From a virus, in the IMG/VR virus record IMGVR_UViG_3300021409_000092, positions 1 to 22,213 of that record: a stretch of DNA of 22,213 nt, one strand, 5' to 3'. Of the stretch, positions 9,820 through 19,840 are shown piece by piece; position 1 is the first letter of the stretch; the number at the start of each line of letters is the position of its first letter. The position numbers and the translations under genes were made by a program. The notes beneath the pieces were generated by a model. It did not search any database. It saw nothing but the letters and a program-made list of their open reading frames with translations, and was not told the origin of the DNA.

Positions 9820-10179
9820 ATGTCGAAGACTGACCACGGCGCAACTGATGTAACGATCGGCTCTGAAGTCTACAGCCTCGCCTTCACCCTGAAGGCCGTG
9901 AAGAATATCGAGCGCCGTTTCGGCGGTATCTCGCCTGCCTTGCAGGAAGTCCAGAAACTGAGCCTGGGTGCGGCCGTGGCCGTCATTGCGGCTGGCGCTG
10001 GCCTGACGCTGAAGCCGAAAGAGGTTGAAGCGCTCGAGGAAGAGATTTACCAAGCCGGTATCGGCGAGGTCACTCCGCCGCTGATTCAATACCTGCTGGC
10101 GTTGCTGAATCCAGCGGCCAAGACCGAAGAAGAGCTCGCGAAAGACGCCGAAGAAGGCGCGAGCAAGGGAAAAAAGTAA
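9820..10179 (+). CDS. tail assembly chaperone G
   Basis: Zero-frame product of the G/G-T gene pair, 119 residues. It acts in tail assembly by binding the tape measure protein and tube subunits and is absent from the finished virion. The protein has a short beta N-terminus (VTIGSEVYSLAFTLKAVKNIE), a helical core (FGGISPALQEVQKLSLGAAVAVIAAG) and a charged tail (AAKTEEELAKDAEEGASKGKK) where the frameshift occurs. Its start ATG at 9820 is preceded by AGGA in a suitable position. The location between tail tube and tape measure is decisive, as is the slippery sequence at its very end. Confidence 0.9.
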   Translation: MSKTDHGATDVTIGSEVYSLAFTLKAVKNIERRFGGISPALQEVQKLSLGAAVAVIAAGAGLTLKPKEVEALEEEIYQAGIGEVTPPLIQYLLALLNPAAKTEEELAKDAEEGASKGKK

Positions 10180-10430
10180 ATCGCCCGAGCAACGGTAGCT
10201 ATGTGGATGAGATCTTCTGCATTGCTACCGGCAGCCTCCAATGGTCGCCGCGCGATGCCTGGGAGACGCCAGTTCCTCAAATCCTGATGGCTTGGGAGGC
10301 GCGAGTCGAGTTTCTTCGCGCGACCAACCCGTTCCGTAAGGTAGAAGACCCCGATACGCCGCCGCCCGAAGAAACCCCCGAGGAGAAACGCCAGCGTCTC
10401 AAAGCGAAGATCCGCGGGATGCGTGGTTGA
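9820..10430 (+). CDS. tail assembly chaperone G-T, made by -1 frameshift
   Basis: Extended form of the chaperone, predicted 203 residues. Ribosomes reading G slip back one base at 10167-10176 and continue in the frame that is open from 10176 to the TGA at 10428-10430. The T part adds 84 residues: VNRPSNGSYVDEIFCIATG, a segment with WSPRDAWETPVPQILMAWEARVEF and a Lys/Glu/Pro-rich tail (EETPEEKRQRLKAKI). The downstream frame has no good start of its own (only GTG at 10203 without a ribosome binding site), as expected for a frameshift-only domain. In lambda, the T domain recruits the tube protein and the G to G-T ratio is critical; I infer the same here. The coding is spliced by frame, so the interval contains two reading frames. 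Confidence 0.85.
10167..10176 (+). promoter_or_regulatory. -1 programmed frameshift site GGGAAAAAAG
   Basis: In the G frame the codons read AAG GGA AAA AAG TAA. Two overlapping slippery heptamers fit the X_XXY_YYZ rule in phase: G GGA AAA (10167-10173) and A AAA AAG (10170-10176); the latter is the efficient E. coli dnaX-type site. The zero-frame stop follows at once (10177-10179). A purine-rich SD-like AAGG (10154-10157) lies about 12 bases upstream, where it could stimulate slippage. Confidence 0.88.
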
Positions 10431-10484
10431 GCTATCGAAAAATTTCTTATGGTAGATTTCTTCCCTTCTAAGGGAGGGTCATGC

Positions 10485-10973
10485 ATGAGGAAGTTGCGCA
10501 CAGCGTTAGTGGCGAGTTGTCTGCCATTTTTTGTCGCGGGGTGTGGTAAGTCGGTAGAGGAGAAAATGGGGGCGATCTGTGAGGATGTAGTAAAAGCATC
10601 CGTTATCGACCCTTCAGCACTAGTTTTCAACTCAGTGTCGGCCAAGCCACAGGAGGCCAGTAAGGAAAGCCTCGTTCGGTTTTTAGGCCTTCGAAATGGT
10701 GGAAGTCTTAATGCTGATCAGCAGCAGGGCCTGCAAAACCTGATGTCGGATATGAGCAAAGTTAAAGAAGCTCTTGCTCGGGTGGACTTTACTGACAAGA
10801 CCGGTGTGGCCCGCAGAGACAATGCTGTTTGCTGGTTTATGGATACTGGACATGGATTTGAGCTTGGTTCGGCGTCTGTTCTTGGAAAAAGATATGTGGG
10901 TATCGACCTAATCGGCCTGTTCGTTAGTCACAACCAGCCAGAATATTTAGATGATATGAATCGAGTTCGTTAG
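10485..10973 (+). CDS. putative lipoprotein, moron between tail chaperones and tape measure
   Basis: A 162-residue predicted lipoprotein. The ATG at 10485 follows AGGGAGGG (10471-10478); an ATG at 10481 is out of frame. Residues 1-19 form a signal peptide (MRKLRT basic start, hydrophobic ALVASCLPFFVAG) with lipobox V-A-G-C at 17-20, so Cys20 should be lipidated. The mature part has two cysteines, Cys32 and Cys116, that could form a disulfide in the periplasm, and motifs IDPSALVFNSV and DNAVCWFMD. Codon use is more AT-rich than the flanking genes. It has its own leader, with TTGAGC (10427) and TATGGT (10448) as a weak promoter candidate with a short 15-base spacer, and two tandem terminators behind it. 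HK97 carries its gp15 superinfection-exclusion gene in this same slot; a similar role here is inference. Confidence 0.85.
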   Translation: MRKLRTALVASCLPFFVAGCGKSVEEKMGAICEDVVKASVIDPSALVFNSVSAKPQEASKESLVRFLGLRNGGSLNADQQQGLQNLMSDMSKVKEALARVDFTDKTGVARRDNAVCWFMDTGHGFELGSASVLGKRYVGIDLIGLFVSHNQPEYLDDMNRVR

Positions 10974-11004
10974 CGTGTCGAGTTAAAGAGCAACGATTGA
11001 AATG

Positions 11005-11030
11005 AAAGCCCGCCTTGTGCGGGCTTTTTT
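11005..11030 (+). terminator. strong intrinsic terminator after lipoprotein gene
   Basis: The 9-bp stem AAAGCCCGC (11005-11013) / GCGGGCTTT (11019-11027) has the loop CTTGT, and the T-run continues to 11030. It lies 32 bases after the lipoprotein stop and is the first of two terminators in tandem. Confidence 0.92.
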
Positions 11031-11034
11031 AATG

Positions 11035-11057
11035 GCCGCCGTTTGGGCGGCTTTTTT
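11035..11057 (+). terminator. second tandem terminator before tape measure
   Basis: The 6-bp stem GCCGCC (11035-11040) / GGCGGC (11046-11051) has the loop GTTTG, followed by six T residues (11052-11057). It ends only 17 bases before the tape measure ATG, so the tape measure ribosome binding site (GGAGA) directly follows it. Confidence 0.85.
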
Positions 11058-11074: not shown

Positions 11075-14000
11075 ATGGCAGGGCAAGAAGTTCGCGGGAT
11101 GCTGATCCGGCTTGAGGCGACTACGGCACAACTCCGTCAGGAGATGGACCGTGCTGACGCCTCGGTTACGAAGGCGACCGGGCGCATTGACACCCAGCTG
11201 GGCAAGGTTGACTCAGCATTTGATCGTGCAGCGAAAAGTGCGCAGTCGGCGGCCGGGGTTTTAAAAGGCGCACTGGCGCTGGCCGTGGGTGGCGCAAGCA
11301 TAAGCGCCATTTTTGATCAGGCTGAAGCCTACACAACCGTTGCAAACCGTCTCAAATTGGTGACGTCTAGCAGCAAAGAATTCACCGACGCTCAAAACGC
11401 GGTTTTCAGTATTGCGCAAAAATCCGGGCAGCCGCTCGGGGCAACTGCGGAGCTCTACCAGCGCATCGCTACAAATCAGAAGGAATTGAAGCTGAGCGGC
11501 CAGGGTGTGGCTGGGATTGTCGAAACCATCTCGAAAACAATGGTCATCAGTGGTGCATCGGCCGCGTCCGCCGATGCTGCGTTGGTGCAGCTTGGACAAT
11601 CCTTTGCGTCTGGCACTTTGCGTGGTGAAGAGCTGAACTCGGTGCTAGAGCAAGCTCCGGCGCTTGCCCAGGCGATAGCGAAAGGCATGGGGAAAACCGT
11701 GGGCGAGCTCCGTTCACTCGGCACGGACGGCAAGCTGACTGCCGCCGCTGTAGTGGCAGCCTTGCAGGCTGAAGCGGGAGCTGTAGACGCGCTGTTCAAT
11801 CAGATGCAAAGCACGATCGGCACTGCTCTGACGCGCATACAAACCTCTTTTACCCGCATCATTGGCGAGGCAGATAAACTGTCCGGTACCAGCGTTTCCC
11901 TCGCAGGTGCAATTAACCAAGCATCCCGAGCACTGGATCAGATCAAGGTTCCAGAGGCCGTAGCGGTGGTCTCCAAACACGCCGAGACGTTGTCCACAGT
12001 GCTGGATGCGGTTCTCTACGCTGCCCTCGGGAAAGTTGCAGCAGGTTTTGCGCAATGGACAGCCGCTTCCGGCGCCGCGGTGCTCGCCAATCAGAAAGCT
12101 CTTGCCGCTGCTGCAAAAACGGCCCAGCAGGATCTTTGGTCGGCGCAATCCAAGCAGATTGACGCTCGGGCCATCGTGGAGCGCCAAGCGTTGGAACTGC
12201 GGGCTGCCCAAGGGAAGGTCTCTTCGGACCGTGCCCGGCAATTATCCGAAGTCGGAAACATCCAGGCCGCGCAAGCGACGCTTGCAGCTGAGGTGGCGTT
12301 GGAGCGTCAGCGCCTGGGGGCACAAATCAGCGAGCAAGGAAGACTCGCATCGAGTGCGCGGCTTAGTGGGCTGCTGGATGCCCAGACACTCGTAACCAAC
12401 AAGCTTGCCGCTGCGGAACAAAAGTTGGCCGCAACTACCGTTGCCACATCTGCGGAAATCCAAGCGGCAAATGCTCGCGTCACGGCTTCTAAGGCCGCCC
12501 TTGCTGAAACAACGCTGGCGGTAAATGCCGCAACTGTGGCCTCTGAAAAGGCAGCTGCAGCCGCATCTATTGCAGGGCGAGCTTGGGGCGGTTTGAAGAC
12601 AGGAGCGGCGGGCCTTTTGGGGCTGCTTGGCGGTCCGGTTGGGCTGGCTTTCATGGCTGGCGCCGTCGCGCTGTCCTTCGTCGATTTCAGCGACAAGTCA
12701 AAGACCCTGATGGGTGATTTGGGCGACCTTGGCAAGTCCGTCGACCAGGTCCGTACCGAGTTTAACAAGCTCAACGAGGATCAGCAGCGCGCCCAAATCA
12801 ACACTTGGAAGGACAAGCAGCTCGGCGCAGCCCTGGCAGTGGAGAACGCTTATAAAGATCTGAAAGAATCGGTTCAAAGCGCACTGGTCGAGCCGGTTAA
12901 TCCTGAGATGGTTGATCCTGCCAAAATGGCAGAGCAACTCCGGTCGTTTGAGGCTTTGGTCGCAAAAATGGATGCCGCACGCGCGGCTGGCCAATCTCTT
13001 AGCCCAATCCTGCGTGAAGCCGCCGCCAATGGTCAGATTTCCCCTGAGCAGCTACGTCAGTGGGAAACAAAAGCCGGGCTGCTGAGCGATAACGCTTCCA
13101 TCGCCGCGCAAGTTACGGCGCGTCTCAGCGAGTTGACAGGCGCGCTTAACCAAAACACGACGGCTACCCAGGCCAATAATCAGGCAAAGGCAGGCTTTAC
13201 AACCGAGGGCGAGAAGTACCTCAGCACCATTCAGAAGCAGCTTGCCGGCCTGCAGGACGGCGGTAACGCAATCAAGGAGGCGAACCGCTACATAGCAGAG
13301 CACGCGGATCTGTCTGAAGCTGACCGCGTTGCGATTCTTTCGACTGCCAATGCGATCGAGGCTAACAAAGCTGCAACCAAGGCAGCAAAGGATGAAACGA
13401 AACTCGGCAACGCAGCGGCGAGAGAGGCGGCTACTGAGCTCAAAAACCAGCAGAAGGCACTCGAAGATCTAACCGCGAAGTCGGCGATCTCGACCAAGTC
13501 CGCCAATGATTTGGCTGATTCTTATTTGGCTGGGATCGGGAGCATTCGCGAGATCACCCTTCAGCAGAAGGTTGAGGAAGAACTTCTCAAGACTGGTGCT
13601 GATGCGCGCGACAAGGTCACAGAGTCGATCCGCAGTCAGATGGCTGCGGAGGATCGCCGAGACGTCGCCAGGAACATCGCAGATCTTCGAATTGAGGCCA
13701 CGCAAACTCTGGCACAGGCAACCGCGACCTTGCGCGGGGCTGACGCGCTCGAAGCGTTCAACGTGCAGAAAGCCATGCAGGTCGCGCTCGTTGGAAAAAA
13801 TATCGAGTACGGCAGCAAAGAGTATGACCAGCTGCTCGAAGCAACCAAGGCGCAGCTGGACCATAACAAAGCGTTGGAACAGGCCGGCGCGGCTAACAGT
13901 ATCGTCGACCGCCTGTATCCACAGACCAAGCTACTGCGCGATTACACCCAGGAGCAGGAAGCGCTCAATAAAGCGATCGAGCTTTATCCGGAAAAAGCAG

Positions 14001-17000
14001 ACGCGTACCGGGACGCGCTGGGCCGTCTTGGCGTCGAATACGAACAAAATCAGCGCGCGGCAACCGCTTGGGGTCAGTTCACCGAGGGTGCAGTTGATCG
14101 GATCGATGACGCCTTTGCAGACATGTGGAAATCTGTCCTCAGCAAGTCCGGGAATTTCATGGACTCGCTCAAAGACAGCTTCCGCCAGTTCCTTGCCGAA
14201 ATGCTGCATATGGCGATCACCAAGCCGATCATCGTGCAGTTTGCGAGTGCGCTCGGGATTGGTGGCGCCGCTGCTCAGTCTTCCGGTTTCTTTGGAGATC
14301 TGGGTGCTGGCGGCGGGGGTGGAATCAGCTCTCTGCTGAGCAACGCAAGCTCTGTCATGTCTGTTGCTGGCAGCAAATTCGGCCAGGCCGTCATGGCGGG
14401 CTGGAACGGCAGCGACGGAATCCTGAACGGCATCCAGGGTGCGTTTGGCAACGGTGCCAGCTACATCAGCTCCGCGATTACTGGCGCATTCACTGCCGGG
14501 TCTGCGACTGCCAGCAGCGCTGCCGCAAGTTTGGCCGCTGGCGGAACTCAGGCTGGCTACACCGGCGCAGCCATGCAGAGCTGGGTAGCTTCGGCAAATG
14601 CTTCGTCCACCCTGGCGTCGCTGAGCACCGCTGTCAGCTACATCGGTGCCGCCTACTCGGTCATCAGTTCGTTCCAGAACTATGGCGTGAAGGGTGGGGC
14701 AACTACGGCTGGCTTCGCCGCGGGTGGCGCGTACTTGGGATCGTTGGTAGGTCCAATCGGCACCGCGGCAGGCGCTGCCATCGGCTCGGTACTGGGCTCG
14801 TTCGTCTCCGGCAAGCTCTTCGGTGGAAGCGGAGAGAAGTATGCAGACCTCAGCACCTCATCTTCGGGTAATTACATCAACGGCCAGTATGTCAGCAACG
14901 GCCCTGTCATGGGCTGGCAGACAAAAGCGCCTAAATACGGCAGCGCAATGGATGCGCAGGTCGACGGTATCGTCGCGAAGTTCACCAGCACCCTGGGCAT
15001 GCTCTATGACGTCCTCGGCAATGGCGCGGATGTGTATGCGTACGACCTGATGCAGGTCCGCAAGACCTCTGGGAAGTACTCGACCACGTTCGGCGCAACG
15101 CTGGATGACGGCACGGGCGTGGGCCTGGACATCCATCAGCAGTTCAATGCTGCTGATGCTGCCGCAGCGCTGCAGCACAACTATGACGACGTCCTGGGCA
15201 CCTTCCTTGCCAAGGCCATTGTCAGTTCGAAGTCGTTGCCGGACTACTTCAAGGCCCAGTTCACAGATTTCGCCGATAGCTGGGACACCACCGCTGATGA
15301 AGTCATCAAGGCTATTGAAGGGGTTTTCACACGTTTTAATGGCGTGAACGATGCGCTGGCGCTGATCAACGTCAACGGCCTGAAGCTTGATAACACCGGC
15401 TTGATGGCTTCGGATGCGATCCTCGATATGGTCGCTGCGATGGCCAAGCTGGATACCACCACGGCCACAGCCAAGGACAAGGTTGATGCGCTGAACAAGT
15501 CGGTCAGCACCTACTACCAGGCGTTCTTTACCGCCGACGAGCAGTTTGCCGATCTGACCAAGAGCCTGAAGAACGCATTCGCCGGGTTCGGCCTGCAGCT
15601 GCCCGACACGCGATCTGCCTACCGGGCCATGGTTGAAGACATTGACGTCACGACGGCTGCAGGACAGGCGATGTTCGCCACATTGGTAGGCCTGGCCCAA
15701 AACGCCGACTCGTATTACTCGACGCTTGACCAAAAGGCTAAGGCAGCGCAACAGGCGGCCGAAGAAGCGGCTGAGGCTGCCAGCCAAGCAGCTACCGATG
15801 CCGCGAAGAAGATTGCTGACGCCCTGATGAAAGGGGCTGCAGACGGGTACAGCGCGTTGCAACGTGCAGTCAGCGCCCAGCAGAAAGCGACAACCGACGC
15901 GCACAACGCTCGCACCGCCTCGCTGAACGACATGCTCAGCACGGTTAACACCAACATCACCGATTTGACCGGCGTCAGCAATGACCTCGGCACGGCGCTG
16001 AAAGCGTTGCGCGGCAACTCGGACGATGCGGTAAAGATGCTGCGCAGCCAGGCTCAGGCCACGTTGCGTTCGGCTTTGGCGATTGCCCAGGCCGGAGGCT
16101 CGTTGGCTGGTTTCAGCGGCTTGAGCGATGCACTGGATACTGTCAGCAGCACCAGCACCGACCTGTATTCGTCGCTTGAGGACTTCAATCGCGATCAGGG
16201 CCGCACCGCGAACGTTGTCAGCCAGTTGGAAGCGCTCAACGGCAAACAACTGACGAATGCCGAGAAGTCGGCGAAGGCTTTGCAGGATCAGCTCGACCAG
16301 GCGAAGAAGGCCTACGATGCCCAGATGGCCCAGTATGAAACACAGCTGGCAATCGGGCAGGCGCAGCTTGATGCGCTCAACGGCGTGGATACATCCGTGC
16401 TGTCGGTCGCGGACGCTGTGAATCGCATGAATGCAGCAGTTGTGGCGGCCTTGGGCGGATTGCCAAGGACTGGCGCGGGCAGTGCCTCCGGCAACACCTG
16501 GGAAAATAACGCGAGCCTGGTGCACACCGCTTACCAGGCGGCCTTTGGCCGAGACGCGGACGAGGGAGGCCTGAGATTCTGGACCGATGCTCTGCAGAAC
16601 GGGACGCTGAGCTATGACCAACTGATCGCTGAGCTGGTCAAGGTCGGAAGGCAGAATGGGGAGTCGATCAAGATTCCAGGCTTCGCTACAGGTGGGTTGA
16701 TTTCCGGACCCGGCACCGGCACCAGCGACAGCATCCTGGCGAGGCTGTCGGCAGGCGAATACATCGTAAATGCTGATGCAGTCCGCACTTACGGCACGGG
16801 CCTGCTGGACCAGATGAACGGCCTCAGTCTCCCGGCGTTCGCCTTGGGAGGCCCTGTGCTGGACATCGTTGAGCCGAGCGGGGTTCGCGTTGCCCCTCAG
16901 ACTTCCGAGATGCTGCAGGGCGGTGGCGACAACGGCGCTGTCCTGGCCGAGCTACGTGCGCTGCGTTCCGAGCTGGAAAGCATCAAGGCCAACACCCAAT

Positions 17001-17086
17001 CCAGCGCCGTCAGCGCAAGCAAGCTTGGAAGAGTCGTAGACCGGGTTACAGACGGCGGCAACGCCATGCTCACGAAGGAACTCTAA
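11075..17086 (+). CDS. tail tape measure protein, 2003 residues
   Basis: Sets tail length and helps DNA entry at infection. The N-terminal domain (about 1-280; MAGQEVRGMLIRLEATTAQLRQ start, then RGEELNSVLEQAPALAQAIAKGMG) is the conserved tape measure domain. A long, mostly helical, Ala/Gln/Lys-rich region follows, with hydrophobic segments near 60-82, 500-540 and 1207-1250 that could insert into the membrane. Near the end, about residues 1811-1860 resemble DUF4214 (AYQAAFGRDADEGGLRFW), and 1870-1905 carry the FATGGLISGPGTGTSDSILA and SAGEYIVNADAV motifs common at tape measure C-termini. By the rule of thumb of about 0.15 nm per residue the tail would be roughly 300 nm if no processing occurs. 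The start has GGAGAAAA upstream; the stop overlaps the next ATG (TAATG). Confidence 0.96.
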   Translation: MAGQEVRGMLIRLEATTAQLRQEMDRADASVTKATGRIDTQLGKVDSAFDRAAKSAQSAAGVLKGALALAVGGASISAIFDQAEAYTTVANRLKLVTSSSKEFTDAQNAVFSIAQKSGQPLGATAELYQRIATNQKELKLSGQGVAGIVETISKTMVISGASAASADAALVQLGQSFASGTLRGEELNSVLEQAPALAQAIAKGMGKTVGELRSLGTDGKLTAAAVVAALQAEAGAVDALFNQMQSTIGTALTRIQTSFTRIIGEADKLSGTSVSLAGAINQASRALDQIKVPEAVAVVSKHAETLSTVLDAVLYAALGKVAAGFAQWTAASGAAVLANQKALAAAAKTAQQDLWSAQSKQIDARAIVERQALELRAAQGKVSSDRARQLSEVGNIQAAQATLAAEVALERQRLGAQISEQGRLASSARLSGLLDAQTLVTNKLAAAEQKLAATTVATSAEIQAANARVTASKAALAETTLAVNAATVASEKAAAAASIAGRAWGGLKTGAAGLLGLLGGPVGLAFMAGAVALSFVDFSDKSKTLMGDLGDLGKSVDQVRTEFNKLNEDQQRAQINTWKDKQLGAALAVENAYKDLKESVQSALVEPVNPEMVDPAKMAEQLRSFEALVAKMDAARAAGQSLSPILREAAANGQISPEQLRQWETKAGLLSDNASIAAQVTARLSELTGALNQNTTATQANNQAKAGFTTEGEKYLSTIQKQLAGLQDGGNAIKEANRYIAEHADLSEADRVAILSTANAIEANKAATKAAKDETKLGNAAAREAATELKNQQKALEDLTAKSAISTKSANDLADSYLAGIGSIREITLQQKVEEELLKTGADARDKVTESIRSQMAAEDRRDVARNIADLRIEATQTLAQATATLRGADALEAFNVQKAMQVALVGKNIEYGSKEYDQLLEATKAQLDHNKALEQAGAANSIVDRLYPQTKLLRDYTQEQEALNKAIELYPEKADAYRDALGRLGVEYEQNQRAATAWGQFTEGAVDRIDDAFADMWKSVLSKSGNFMDSLKDSFRQFLAEMLHMAITKPIIVQFASALGIGGAAAQSSGFFGDLGAGGGGGISSLLSNASSVMSVAGSKFGQAVMAGWNGSDGILNGIQGAFGNGASYISSAITGAFTAGSATASSAAASLAAGGTQAGYTGAAMQSWVASANASSTLASLSTAVSYIGAAYSVISSFQNYGVKGGATTAGFAAGGAYLGSLVGPIGTAAGAAIGSVLGSFVSGKLFGGSGEKYADLSTSSSGNYINGQYVSNGPVMGWQTKAPKYGSAMDAQVDGIVAKFTSTLGMLYDVLGNGADVYAYDLMQVRKTSGKYSTTFGATLDDGTGVGLDIHQQFNAADAAAALQHNYDDVLGTFLAKAIVSSKSLPDYFKAQFTDFADSWDTTADEVIKAIEGVFTRFNGVNDALALINVNGLKLDNTGLMASDAILDMVAAMAKLDTTTATAKDKVDALNKSVSTYYQAFFTADEQFADLTKSLKNAFAGFGLQLPDTRSAYRAMVEDIDVTTAAGQAMFATLVGLAQNADSYYSTLDQKAKAAQQAAEEAAEAASQAATDAAKKIADALMKGAADGYSALQRAVSAQQKATTDAHNARTASLNDMLSTVNTNITDLTGVSNDLGTALKALRGNSDDAVKMLRSQAQATLRSALAIAQAGGSLAGFSGLSDALDTVSSTSTDLYSSLEDFNRDQGRTANVVSQLEALNGKQLTNAEKSAKALQDQLDQAKKAYDAQMAQYETQLAIGQAQLDALNGVDTSVLSVADAVNRMNAAVVAALGGLPRTGAGSASGNTWENNASLVHTAYQAAFGRDADEGGLRFWTDALQNGTLSYDQLIAELVKVGRQNGESIKIPGFATGGLISGPGTGTSDSILARLSAGEYIVNADAVRTYGTGLLDQMNGLSLPAFALGGPVLDIVEPSGVRVAPQTSEMLQGGGDNGAVLAELRALRSELESIKANTQSSAVSASKLGRVVDRVTDGGNAMLTKEL

Positions 17087-17994: not shown

Positions 17995-19190
17995 TGGCAG
18001 TTACACCACTTCCGTTTCTTGACCGGACAGCAGCAACGTTCAAAACCGACGTCGATGCCTTCTTTGCCCAGAAACTGCCGCAGTTCTCAGTGGAGGTGAA
18101 CCAGGTTGCTACCGACGCGCAGACAAGCGCCACGGCGGCCAACACGTCAAAAACCGCAGCAGCAACCAGTGCCACCAACGCCAAGACCAGCGAGACCAAC
18201 GCGGCGAACTCAGCCAGTGCAGCGAACACGTCGAAAACCAACGCTGCCACCAGCGAGACCAACGCAGCCAGCTCAGCCACAGCTGCAAACAGCTCGAAGA
18301 CGGCGGCAGCCAACAGCGCAACGGCGGCAGCTACCAGCGCGACGAACTCCGAGGCATCAGCTGTTCGTGCAAAAAACGCGGCTGATAGCATTGCCAGCGG
18401 CCCGGTCACCAGCGTGAACGGGAAGACCGGCGCGCCGGTGCTGAACAAGGCCGATATCGGCTTGCCCAACGTTGACAACATCTCGGTCTATAACAAAGGT
18501 CTCTTTCAGACCGGATCGGGCGGCCTCCTTTCCAGTATCGCAAACATTGATGAGCTGGTAACTCTAACCAATGGCTGGTATGCGATATCAGGAACTGGTA
18601 CCACTGGAACCAAGCCACCGGGAGAAACTTGGGGCACATTGCTTGTATCTGGCAGGGCCTTTCAATCCGATGCACGAATTACACAGATATTCTTTTCGGA
18701 ATCTTCCGATCTGATTTGGTGGCGCAGAAATGCAGGCGGCACTTGGGGTGCGTGGAAACTTCTGAGCTTCCCCATCTTACCGGGGCCACTTCGACTGCCT
18801 TTGACCACAGGCAGCGATGGCCTTACCCCAGCATGGACTAACACCCTCAGCATTACCCAATATATTGATAAAGTCATTGAGACCAACGTAGCTGCATCAA
18901 GAACACTCAACCTAGCCCAAGCTACTGTTTATGACCTCACCCTTACAACGGCTAATGCCACCATCAGCACATCTAATATGCCGTCGCTGAGCGGAGAGAC
19001 ATTAACTCTGGTGGTGCGAATTCGACAGGGAAGCACTCCGCGAGCTATCACATGGTTTAGCGGTATCACCTGGCTGACTCCAGGCGGCCTTGCCCCTGCG
19101 ACCCCTGTGGCTAACCAGGTTGTGGAATACATATTCAGCACGAACGGCGATGGTTCTGCATGGCTCGGCCGCGTTGGGGCGTCAACATGA
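17994..19190 (+). CDS. tail fibre protein
   Basis: Probable receptor-contacting fibre, 398 residues. Residues 1-37 form the attachment end. Residues 38-135 are an Ala/Ser/Thr/Asn-rich repetitive shaft with two exact-register 21-residue units (65-85 and 86-106), probably a trimeric coiled coil as in lambda Stf-type side fibres. A linker VTSVNGKTGAPVLNKADIGL (138-157) is a motif common to phage fibres. Residues about 188-259 resemble the pyocin-knob domain (NGWYAISG, WGTLLVSG, WWRRNAGGTWGAWKLL). The C-terminal part (270-398) is beta-rich and more AT-biased at DNA level from about 18540. It ends ATGA into the next gene, a lectin-like protein, so translation is coupled. Confidence 0.9.
   Translation: MAVTPLPFLDRTAATFKTDVDAFFAQKLPQFSVEVNQVATDAQTSATAANTSKTAAATSATNAKTSETNAANSASAANTSKTNAATSETNAASSATAANSSKTAAANSATAAATSATNSEASAVRAKNAADSIASGPVTSVNGKTGAPVLNKADIGLPNVDNISVYNKGLFQTGSGGLLSSIANIDELVTLTNGWYAISGTGTTGTKPPGETWGTLLVSGRAFQSDARITQIFFSESSDLIWWRRNAGGTWGAWKLLSFPILPGPLRLPLTTGSDGLTPAWTNTLSITQYIDKVIETNVAASRTLNLAQATVYDLTLTTANATISTSNMPSLSGETLTLVVRIRQGSTPRAITWFSGITWLTPGGLAPATPVANQVVEYIFSTNGDGSAWLGRVGAST
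18121..18375 (+). repeat. repetitive fibre-shaft coding region with 63-base units
   Basis: The shaft of the fibre gene is internally repetitive. The 17-base string starting ACCAGCGAGACC occurs at 18186 and again at 18249, exactly 63 bases (21 codons) apart, and the whole unit TSETNAAxSAxAANxSKTxAA is repeated twice with looser copies on either side. Such repeats allow unequal recombination that shortens or lengthens the shaft. Confidence 0.75.
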
Positions 19191-19840
19191 GGCTCGCTAC
19201 CGCTACGCTGATGTCAAGGGCGCCAATCCCCACCATACCAGGCACCCCATATGGCGGGGGTTACTACGTCGGGCGGATGATAGGCGGTGACGGCGTCAAA
19301 TACGCTGTCATCTTGGCGCCGAAGTCTGGTGGTGAGTGGCCATATACTCTCAACTACAGAACTTCTGCGGTTTCTACACCAGCTGCTGCGAGCGCTTGGG
19401 ATGGGGCTGCCAACACTGCGGCTCTTATCGCATTAGGTGCCGGGGTTAGTGCGATTGCTGACTTTGTTCTTCAGGTGAATAATAATGGCGGAATAAATGG
19501 ATATACCGACTGGTTTATACCTGCCCGCTATCAGCTCGAAATGTGCTATCGCAACCTGAAACCGTTCACTTCTGCTAATAGTACCGATAGTCCAGGTGCA
19601 ACAAACAACACCTATGCAGATCCAAATACCCCTGCGTATACGGCAACTGTTCCAGCCCAAACAACGGTTGCCGCATTTCAAGGTGGAGGCGCTGAAGCCT
19701 TTTTTAATGATAACTATTGGACTTCGACTGAATATCCAACGGCTAATGCTTGGTGTCAGGATATGAACTCTGGCCGTATGCCCAACAATAGTAAGACTCT
19801 CGGATTCCGATGCCGATTGATCAGACTTATCAAAATTTAA
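19187..19840 (+). CDS. DUF1566 lectin-like tail protein
   Basis: A 217-residue protein with a C-type-lectin-like DUF1566 (Lcl_C) domain. The ATG at 19187 overlaps the fibre stop (ATGA); an upstream frame opening at 19160 would overlap the fibre. Residues 20-60 contain PYGGGYYVGRMIGGDGVKYA; the DUF1566 core shows TDWFIPARYQLEMCYRNL (about 107-124), YWTSTEY (177-183), AWCQDMNSG (188-196) and GFRCRLIR (206-213). No signal peptide is visible. The gene is AT-richer than the head and tape measure genes and uses many AAY codons. With its position behind the fibre it is probably a receptor-binding tip or fibre cap. DUF1566 folds are also used by diversity-generating retroelement targets, but no reverse transcriptase lies in this window. 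Confidence 0.82.
   Translation: MRLATATLMSRAPIPTIPGTPYGGGYYVGRMIGGDGVKYAVILAPKSGGEWPYTLNYRTSAVSTPAAASAWDGAANTAALIALGAGVSAIADFVLQVNNNGGINGYTDWFIPARYQLEMCYRNLKPFTSANSTDSPGATNNTYADPNTPAYTATVPAQTTVAAFQGGGAEAFFNDNYWTSTEYPTANAWCQDMNSGRMPNNSKTLGFRCRLIRLIKI

What the first reader, a model, noticed from the sequence alone, without database searches (positions are those of the whole stretch)
10431..11057. Lipoprotein moron in the slot of HK97 gp15: candidate superinfection exclusion gene
A predicted lipoprotein gene with its own strong ribosome binding site, AT-richer codons and two tandem terminators interrupts the otherwise tight tail operon exactly between the chaperone pair and the tape measure gene. 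In HK97 the same slot holds gp15, a superinfection exclusion protein whose target is linked to the tape measure. Here the protein is a lipoprotein with two cysteines rather than an inner-membrane protein, so it would be a different solution at the same locus, possibly undescribed.
Basis: partly seen in the sequence, partly recalled or inferred. Interest (0 to 1): 0.65.

Follow-up and report, generated by a model that had tools for sequence, protein, structure and literature searches.

The report
Envelope-protein cargo slot beside tape measure
A small membrane-anchored protein gene sits in a cargo slot of a Pseudomonas virus's tail genes; related viruses carry many unrelated envelope proteins in the same slot, most behind the same promoter-like signal, which suggests an exchangeable set of genes probably used to keep rival viruses out of the cell.

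Summary
Window 10485-10973 encodes a 162-aa lipoprotein (lipobox FVAGC, strong SD, GC3 0.47 against 0.65-0.81 in most neighbours) between the tail-chaperone pair and the tape measure gene (TMP), the HK97 gp15 slot. The gene is dispensable: the nearest relatives (TMP 84-90% identical) have the slot empty or filled with something else. Across 51 non-redundant relatives, 40 slots are filled, and nearly all TMP-adjacent occupants are lipoproteins, signal-peptide proteins or membrane proteins of unrelated families.

New here: 31 of 40 filled slots carry an extended -10-type element, TGnTAnnnT (window: TGGTAGATT, 10450-10458), 21-29 nt before the start codon in 30 of them; 1 of 521 other SD-led ORF starts does. 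Searching 2.9 million viral contigs with this leader alone returned mostly envelope-protein genes: of 77 hits with an ORF, 63 lie just upstream of a TMP gene and others before tail gene I. Homologues of the lipoprotein occupy both slots.

Best explanation: a self-transcribed moron whose lipoprotein, possibly kept in the inner membrane (CGKS as in MexA), blocks genome entry of related siphophages. The moron and slot are well supported by sequence. Promoter function, lysogen expression and exclusion are inferred. It is not a gp15 homologue.

The parts
9820..10179 (+). tail assembly chaperone, G-like (119 aa)
   Evidence: phrog_6454 E 1.7e-32, phrog_2115 tail protein E 2.7e-10; Pfam Phage_TAC_11 only weak, below cut-off
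10170..10176 (+). A AAA AAG slippery site for a -1 frameshift joining G and GT
   Evidence: in phase; -1 frame open to 10430
10203..10430 (+). GT-like chaperone extension
   Evidence: phrog_7493 E 2.1e-16, matching only the C-terminal part of a 178-aa profile
10450..10458 (+). TGGTAGATT, putative extended -10 promoter element (hexamer TAGATT), 26 nt before the start codon; the only copy in the window
   Evidence: same element at 21-29 nt in 30 of 40 non-redundant filled slots (31 with any spacing), 1 of 521 control starts; blind collection scan
10470..10478 (+). Shine-Dalgarno AAGGGAGGG
   Evidence: sequence; GGGAG is part of the shared leader
10485..10973 (+). lipoprotein moron (162 aa, P0001)
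   Evidence: homologues
10485..10541 (+). signal peptide, residues 1-19, before lipidated Cys20; mature start CGKS
   Evidence: sequence; CGKS identical to mature MexA
11004..11028 (+). first intrinsic terminator, arriving with the moron
   Evidence: hairpin -15.7 kcal/mol plus T run; no counterpart in empty slots
11034..11052 (+). second intrinsic terminator, part of the TMP flank
   Evidence: hairpin -14.6 kcal/mol; a terminator at this place is kept in empty slots
11075..17086 (+). tape measure protein gene (2003 aa)
   Evidence: size and position; similarity to TMPs of phiPSA1 and others

Best explanation
It is a moron cassette in an exchangeable cargo slot upstream of the tape measure gene of Pseudomonas siphophages. 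An extended -10 promoter (TGGTAGATT) with a short leader drives the lipoprotein on its own from the otherwise silent prophage, and its terminator insulates the tail operon. The protein is exported, lipidated at Cys20 and folded in the periplasm with a likely C32-C116 disulfide, possibly held in the inner membrane by its CGKS start. There it interferes with a late step of genome entry of related siphophages, most plausibly by meeting the incoming tape measure protein or the host entry partner it needs. Shown by sequence: moron anatomy, exchange and loss in relatives, the shared leader, envelope targeting. Inferred: promoter activity and lysogen expression (strong inference), inner-membrane location (moderate), exclusion of phages via TMP-dependent entry (from the slot, the class of cargo, and gp15/Ltp as precedents).
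For: Slot empty or differently filled in relatives with 84-90% identical TMP: L027, L029 empty; L028, L031, L032 other proteins. No copy elsewhere in the 46.6-kb record of L029. 40 of 51 non-redundant slots filled, nearly all by lipo-, signal-peptide or TM proteins of many families. Shared leader: 31/40 against 1/521 and 0/51 TMP starts. Blind leader scan: 63 of 77 hits with an ORF lie upstream of a TMP, 3 scored (and others by inspection) upstream of tail gene I. Lipoprotein relatives at the TMP slot in three further lineages (L043/L046, L097, L098) and at K-I in P. aeruginosa phages Alize and U2. Precedents: HK97 gp15 in the same slot, escaped by HK97 hybrids with HK022 tail tube and TMP genes; Ltp lipoprotein overcome by TMP changes (PMC10883804); Tab moron of JBD26 targets the TMP (PMC10884400).
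Against: No experiment. No homology to any known exclusion protein. CGKS is not conserved among relatives, and K3/S4 is a disputed signal (PMC6469965). The window holds no lysogeny module, so temperate life is inferred from relatives. Some of the leaders that defined the motif were also counted in the 31/40. The same leader heads many families that could have other envelope functions.
Confidence: 0.5

Rival explanations
1. Lysogenic-conversion factor unrelated to phage exclusion: the slot carries envelope proteins that change host fitness, stress resistance or surface properties, and the lipoprotein is one of them.
For: Cargo is very diverse in family and topology (24 protein clusters), including a lipoprotein that looks RcsF-like by eye (L037) and C-terminally anchored proteins; no defence model matches.
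Against: The confirmed gene at this slot, HK97 gp15, is an exclusion protein (PMC10883804); constant coupling of envelope cargo to two tail slots fits a phage-entry role better.
Confidence: 0.27
2. Superinfection exclusion at the outer membrane: the lipoprotein goes to the outer membrane and inactivates a receptor, in the manner of phi80/N15 Cor or T5 Llp, not TMP-linked entry.
For: Small phage lipoproteins with this role are known (own knowledge); relatives lack CGKS.
Against: CGKS start of this protein matches inner-membrane MexA; the slot has no link with receptor-binding genes.
Confidence: 0.13
3. Tail assembly factor or virion component transcribed only late.
For: Lies in the tail operon on the same strand.
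Against: Absent from close relatives, lipoprotein signal, alternative position between K and I, own promoter-like element and terminator.
Confidence: 0.04
4. The TGGTAGATT leader is not a promoter but a recombination linker or RNA element that lets cargo be swapped.
For: In the phiPSA1-type group the flank up to the element is conserved while the cargo differs.
Against: In the window's group, different slots hold different TGnTAnnnT variants (TGGTAGATT, TGGTACCCT, TGCTAGGCT), as a degenerate promoter would; fixed spacing to the start codon; weak T-rich/TTGG box about 18 bp upstream of the hexamer in many.
Confidence: 0.12

Closest known systems
HK97 gp15 superinfection exclusion moron
   Same: Same slot between tail chaperones and TMP, short gene with its own terminator, envelope-targeted; exclusion linked to the tail tube/TMP region (PMC10883804)
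   Different: gp15 is a 62-aa one-TM protein without sequence similarity; here a 162-aa lipoprotein with a folded periplasmic domain; HK97's leader lacks TGnTAnnnT
Ltp of Streptococcus thermophilus phage TP-J34
   Same: Prophage lipoprotein outside the cytoplasmic membrane that blocks DNA injection; TMP is its target (PMC3952083, PMC10883804)
   Different: Gene lies in the lysogeny module (PMC3952083); no sequence match of this family to any solved structure
Tab of Pseudomonas phage JBD26
   Same: Pseudomonas siphophage moron in the late operon, expressed from the prophage, acts on the TMP (PMC10884400)
   Different: 83 aa, sits between terminase genes and blocks tail assembly, not entry
Lipoprotein of P. 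aeruginosa phages Alize and vB_Pae_U2
   Same: Homologue, 36-39% identity, C20, C32 and C116 conserved
   Different: Sits between tail genes K and I; leader TGCTACCCT rather than TGGTAGATT; unannotated or hypothetical

Membership tests
HK97 gp15-type superinfection exclusion moron | located between tail assembly chaperone genes and TMP | tested here: met
HK97 gp15-type superinfection exclusion moron | sequence homology to gp15 | tested here: not met
   BLASTP 11 bits, hhalign probability 0.3%
HK97 gp15-type superinfection exclusion moron | N-terminal transmembrane anchor in the inner membrane | tested here: not met
   signal peptide with lipobox instead; possible inner-membrane lipid anchor by CGKS
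HK97 gp15-type superinfection exclusion moron | blocks genome entry of phages with related TMP | not testable with these tools
   needs plating and entry assays
Moron (autonomous accessory gene) | present or absent between otherwise similar genomes | tested here: met
Moron (autonomous accessory gene) | own promoter and terminator | tested here: inconclusive
   terminator present; promoter-like element strongly enriched; transcription not measured
Moron (autonomous accessory gene) | base composition unlike neighbours | tested here: met
   GC3 0.469; most neighbours 0.65-0.81, three exceptions
Ltp lipoprotein family | Ltp-type sequence or fold | tested here: not met
   no significant PDB sequence or Foldseek match; Ltp itself was not aligned directly

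The most novel reading that the evidence does not exclude
Pseudomonas siphophages share a standard cargo module: one promoter-leader (TGGTAGATT plus SD) and terminator flank in two tail-operon slots (before TMP and before tail gene I), into which some twenty unrelated envelope-targeted genes are swapped, forming a common, largely unannotated arsenal of entry-exclusion proteins that can be found from the leader alone.
Probability: 0.45. Interest if true: 0.78.

Novelty: new variant of a known kind. Interest (0 to 1): 0.62.

Why it matters
A single undescribed lipoprotein becomes one member of a class. The shared leader gives a simple, testable way to find prophage-expressed envelope genes, and the two slots point to many uncharacterised candidates for proteins that control phage entry in Pseudomonas. 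Whether unrelated envelope proteins at the tape measure slot all act on entry is an open question that this makes directly testable.

Tried and rejected
Pfam, NCBIfam and PADLOC: no family for the lipoprotein; a weak PHROG 2320 match (E 0.007) is mostly signal peptide plus a DPS motif, and that family is widespread in Pseudomonas genomes, so no assignment. Profile comparison with the L028 slot protein failed. AlphaFold model (pLDDT 76.5, pTM 0.69, only four sequences) found no fold relative at E <= 0.001 in BFVD or PDB; LptE-like hits are insignificant. Plasmids: no match. First genome-contig scan: none. Consensus sigma-70 scan found no promoter because it needs a -35 match; the extended -10 was seen only by comparing leaders. 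Signal-peptide-only matches L100-L103 discounted (L101 read). Wrong-start 43-aa ORFs and random pattern hits (for example L158, L180, L210) in the leader scan discounted. Spanin role rejected: no partner gene, wrong place.

Full report
1. The observation. The window is a 22,213-base IMG/VR virus record. Its gene order is head, connector, tail tube, chaperone pair, lipoprotein, TMP, tail tip, lysis. The chaperone pair has a textbook A AAA AAG slippery site at 10170-10176, and the -1 frame stays open to 10430. The ORF at 10485-10973 encodes MRKLRTALVASCLPFFVAGCGKSVEEK..., a signal peptide and lipobox. GC3 is 0.469, against 0.65-0.81 for most other genes. Two terminator hairpins follow.

2. Which parts belong to the gene. 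Relatives with 87-88% identical TMP N-termini have an empty slot: L027 (96 bp) and L029 (101 bp), against 644 bp here. These empty slots still hold a terminator immediately before the TMP ribosome site (L029: ACCGGTTCAACAGCCGGTTTTTTT). The second tandem terminator of the window therefore belongs to the TMP flank; the first arrives with the gene.

3. The slot. A search with the TMP N-terminus gave 82 loci (12 from sequenced Pseudomonas genomes, 70 viral contigs). With the chaperone end located, 78 slots, 51 of them non-redundant, could be measured: 11 are empty and 40 filled. The TMP-adjacent occupant is a lipoprotein, signal-peptide protein or membrane protein in nearly all; the clear exception is a TPR-like soluble protein in L014 (the classification is a simple hydropathy and lipobox rule, and a few start codons were chosen by rule). 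In L028 and L031 (TMP 90% and 84% identical to the window's) the slot holds a two-TM protein with a periplasmic domain and a TM-hairpin protein with a zinc ribbon.

4. The lipoprotein family is rare. Homologues: an identical contig; P. aeruginosa phages Alize and vB_Pae_U2 and related contigs L009-L013; L043/L046 in the same slot, 25% identical, hhalign E 5e-9; L097 and L098, found in 2 of 399 Pseudomonas genomes, again directly upstream of a TMP. Gly19-Cys20, Cys32 and Cys116 are invariant in the six-sequence alignment. In Alize and U2 the gene lies between tail genes K and I, and the chaperone-TMP gap is 39 bp. The near relatives D14B and 5400 have a different lipoprotein and a TM-hairpin protein at K-I; by sequence inspection these resemble occupants of the TMP slot elsewhere (L075 and L033). 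The two slots thus seem to draw on the same pool of genes.

5. A shared leader. Lining up leaders showed TGnTAnnnT, the extended -10 form, before unrelated genes. In the whole panel it stands 21-36 nt before a Shine-Dalgarno-led start codon in 31 of 40 filled slots, 30 of them at 21-29 nt, and reads exactly TGGTAGATT in 16. Controls in the same loci: 1 of 521 other SD-led ORF starts, 0 of 51 TMP starts, and in the window only this gene among 22 (Fisher p about 1e-41). This p-value is too optimistic: the motif was defined on some of these leaders, and some leaders are related. With flanks under 60% identical, 21 leaders with the motif remain. The out-of-sample test is the scan of 2.9 million viral contigs with TGGTAGATTGN{8,13}CAGGGAG, which contains no protein information: 94 stretches; of 87 analysed, 77 had an ORF, 63 of these directly upstream of a TMP of several types, 3 upstream of tail gene I by the rule used, 4 at contig ends, 7 unassigned, of which several are K-I or truncated cases by eye. 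About ten of these contigs were already in the panel. The pattern includes the SD, so being followed by an ORF is partly built in; lying next to TMP is not. Occupants with the leader fall into 24 protein clusters, about 20 of them envelope-type. Many leaders also have a T-rich/TTGG box about 18 bp upstream of the hexamer; the window's does not.

6. How it most likely works. An extended -10 promoter independent of late antitermination would express the gene from a prophage, with a 5' UTR of about 20 nt. The product would be exported and lipidated. Its first four residues, CGKS, are those of mature MexA (PDB 1t5e), an inner-membrane lipoprotein; Lys+3 and Ser+4 have been proposed as retention signals in P. 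aeruginosa, although they are not general (PMC6469965). AlphaFold gives a helix followed by a mainly strand-rich domain with a helical insertion (pLDDT 76.5), without a recognisable solved relative. Function by precedent: HK97 gp15, in the same slot, blocks injection and is escaped by HK97 hybrids with HK022 tail tube and TMP genes; TP-J34 Ltp, a lipoprotein outside the cytoplasmic membrane, is overcome by TMP changes (PMC10883804, PMC3952083); Tab targets the TMP inside the cell (PMC10884400); SNIPE acts through the TMP at entry (PMC13190303). Tail-slot cargo acting on TMP-dependent entry is the simplest common reading, but no slot protein other than gp15 is known to me to have been tested.

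7. Limits. The window has no lysogeny genes; temperate life is inferred from relatives found in bacterial genomes. Neither transcription nor exclusion was measured. Many contigs are fragments, so 'absent' means absent in the record held. The primary gp15 paper (JB.00843-12) was not held; it and the 2015 follow-up are cited through PMC10883804.

Noticed in passing
window 10170-10176: A AAA AAG slippery site in phase, giving a G-GT tail chaperone fusion open to 10430.
   Followed up: yes
L005 13286-13528 and L033 418-735: TM-hairpin proteins with an APW motif occur in both the K-I slot and the TMP slot; L033 has a weak match to phrog_944 'membrane protein, moron'.
   Followed up: partly
L037 3590-3943, L039 3591-3944: 117-aa cysteine-containing slot lipoprotein that looks RcsF-like by eye; no Pfam match.
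   Followed up: partly
L017 3586-3945, L028 3280-3780, L083, L141: Slot proteins with a recurring '(K/D)xPxSAxF ... C' periplasmic domain, as in phrog_2320/13160, widespread in Pseudomonas genomes.
   Followed up: partly
L098 2144-2569: ORF of 141 aa on the opposite strand between the chaperone and the lipoprotein gene, possibly a reverse moron.
   Followed up: no
L104 1489-2052 (L135): Distant homologue (E 1.2e-18) in another gammaproteobacterium, without lipobox and with no obvious phage genes next to it in the stretch seen.
   Followed up: no
window 19160-19840: Another low-GC3 gene (0.469) in the tail region, perhaps horizontally acquired.
   Followed up: no
L096 7561-7659 (HK97 K-I gap): 32-aa TM peptide ORF followed by an annotated terminator in the HK97 K-I gap, so HK97 may use the same second slot.
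   Followed up: no
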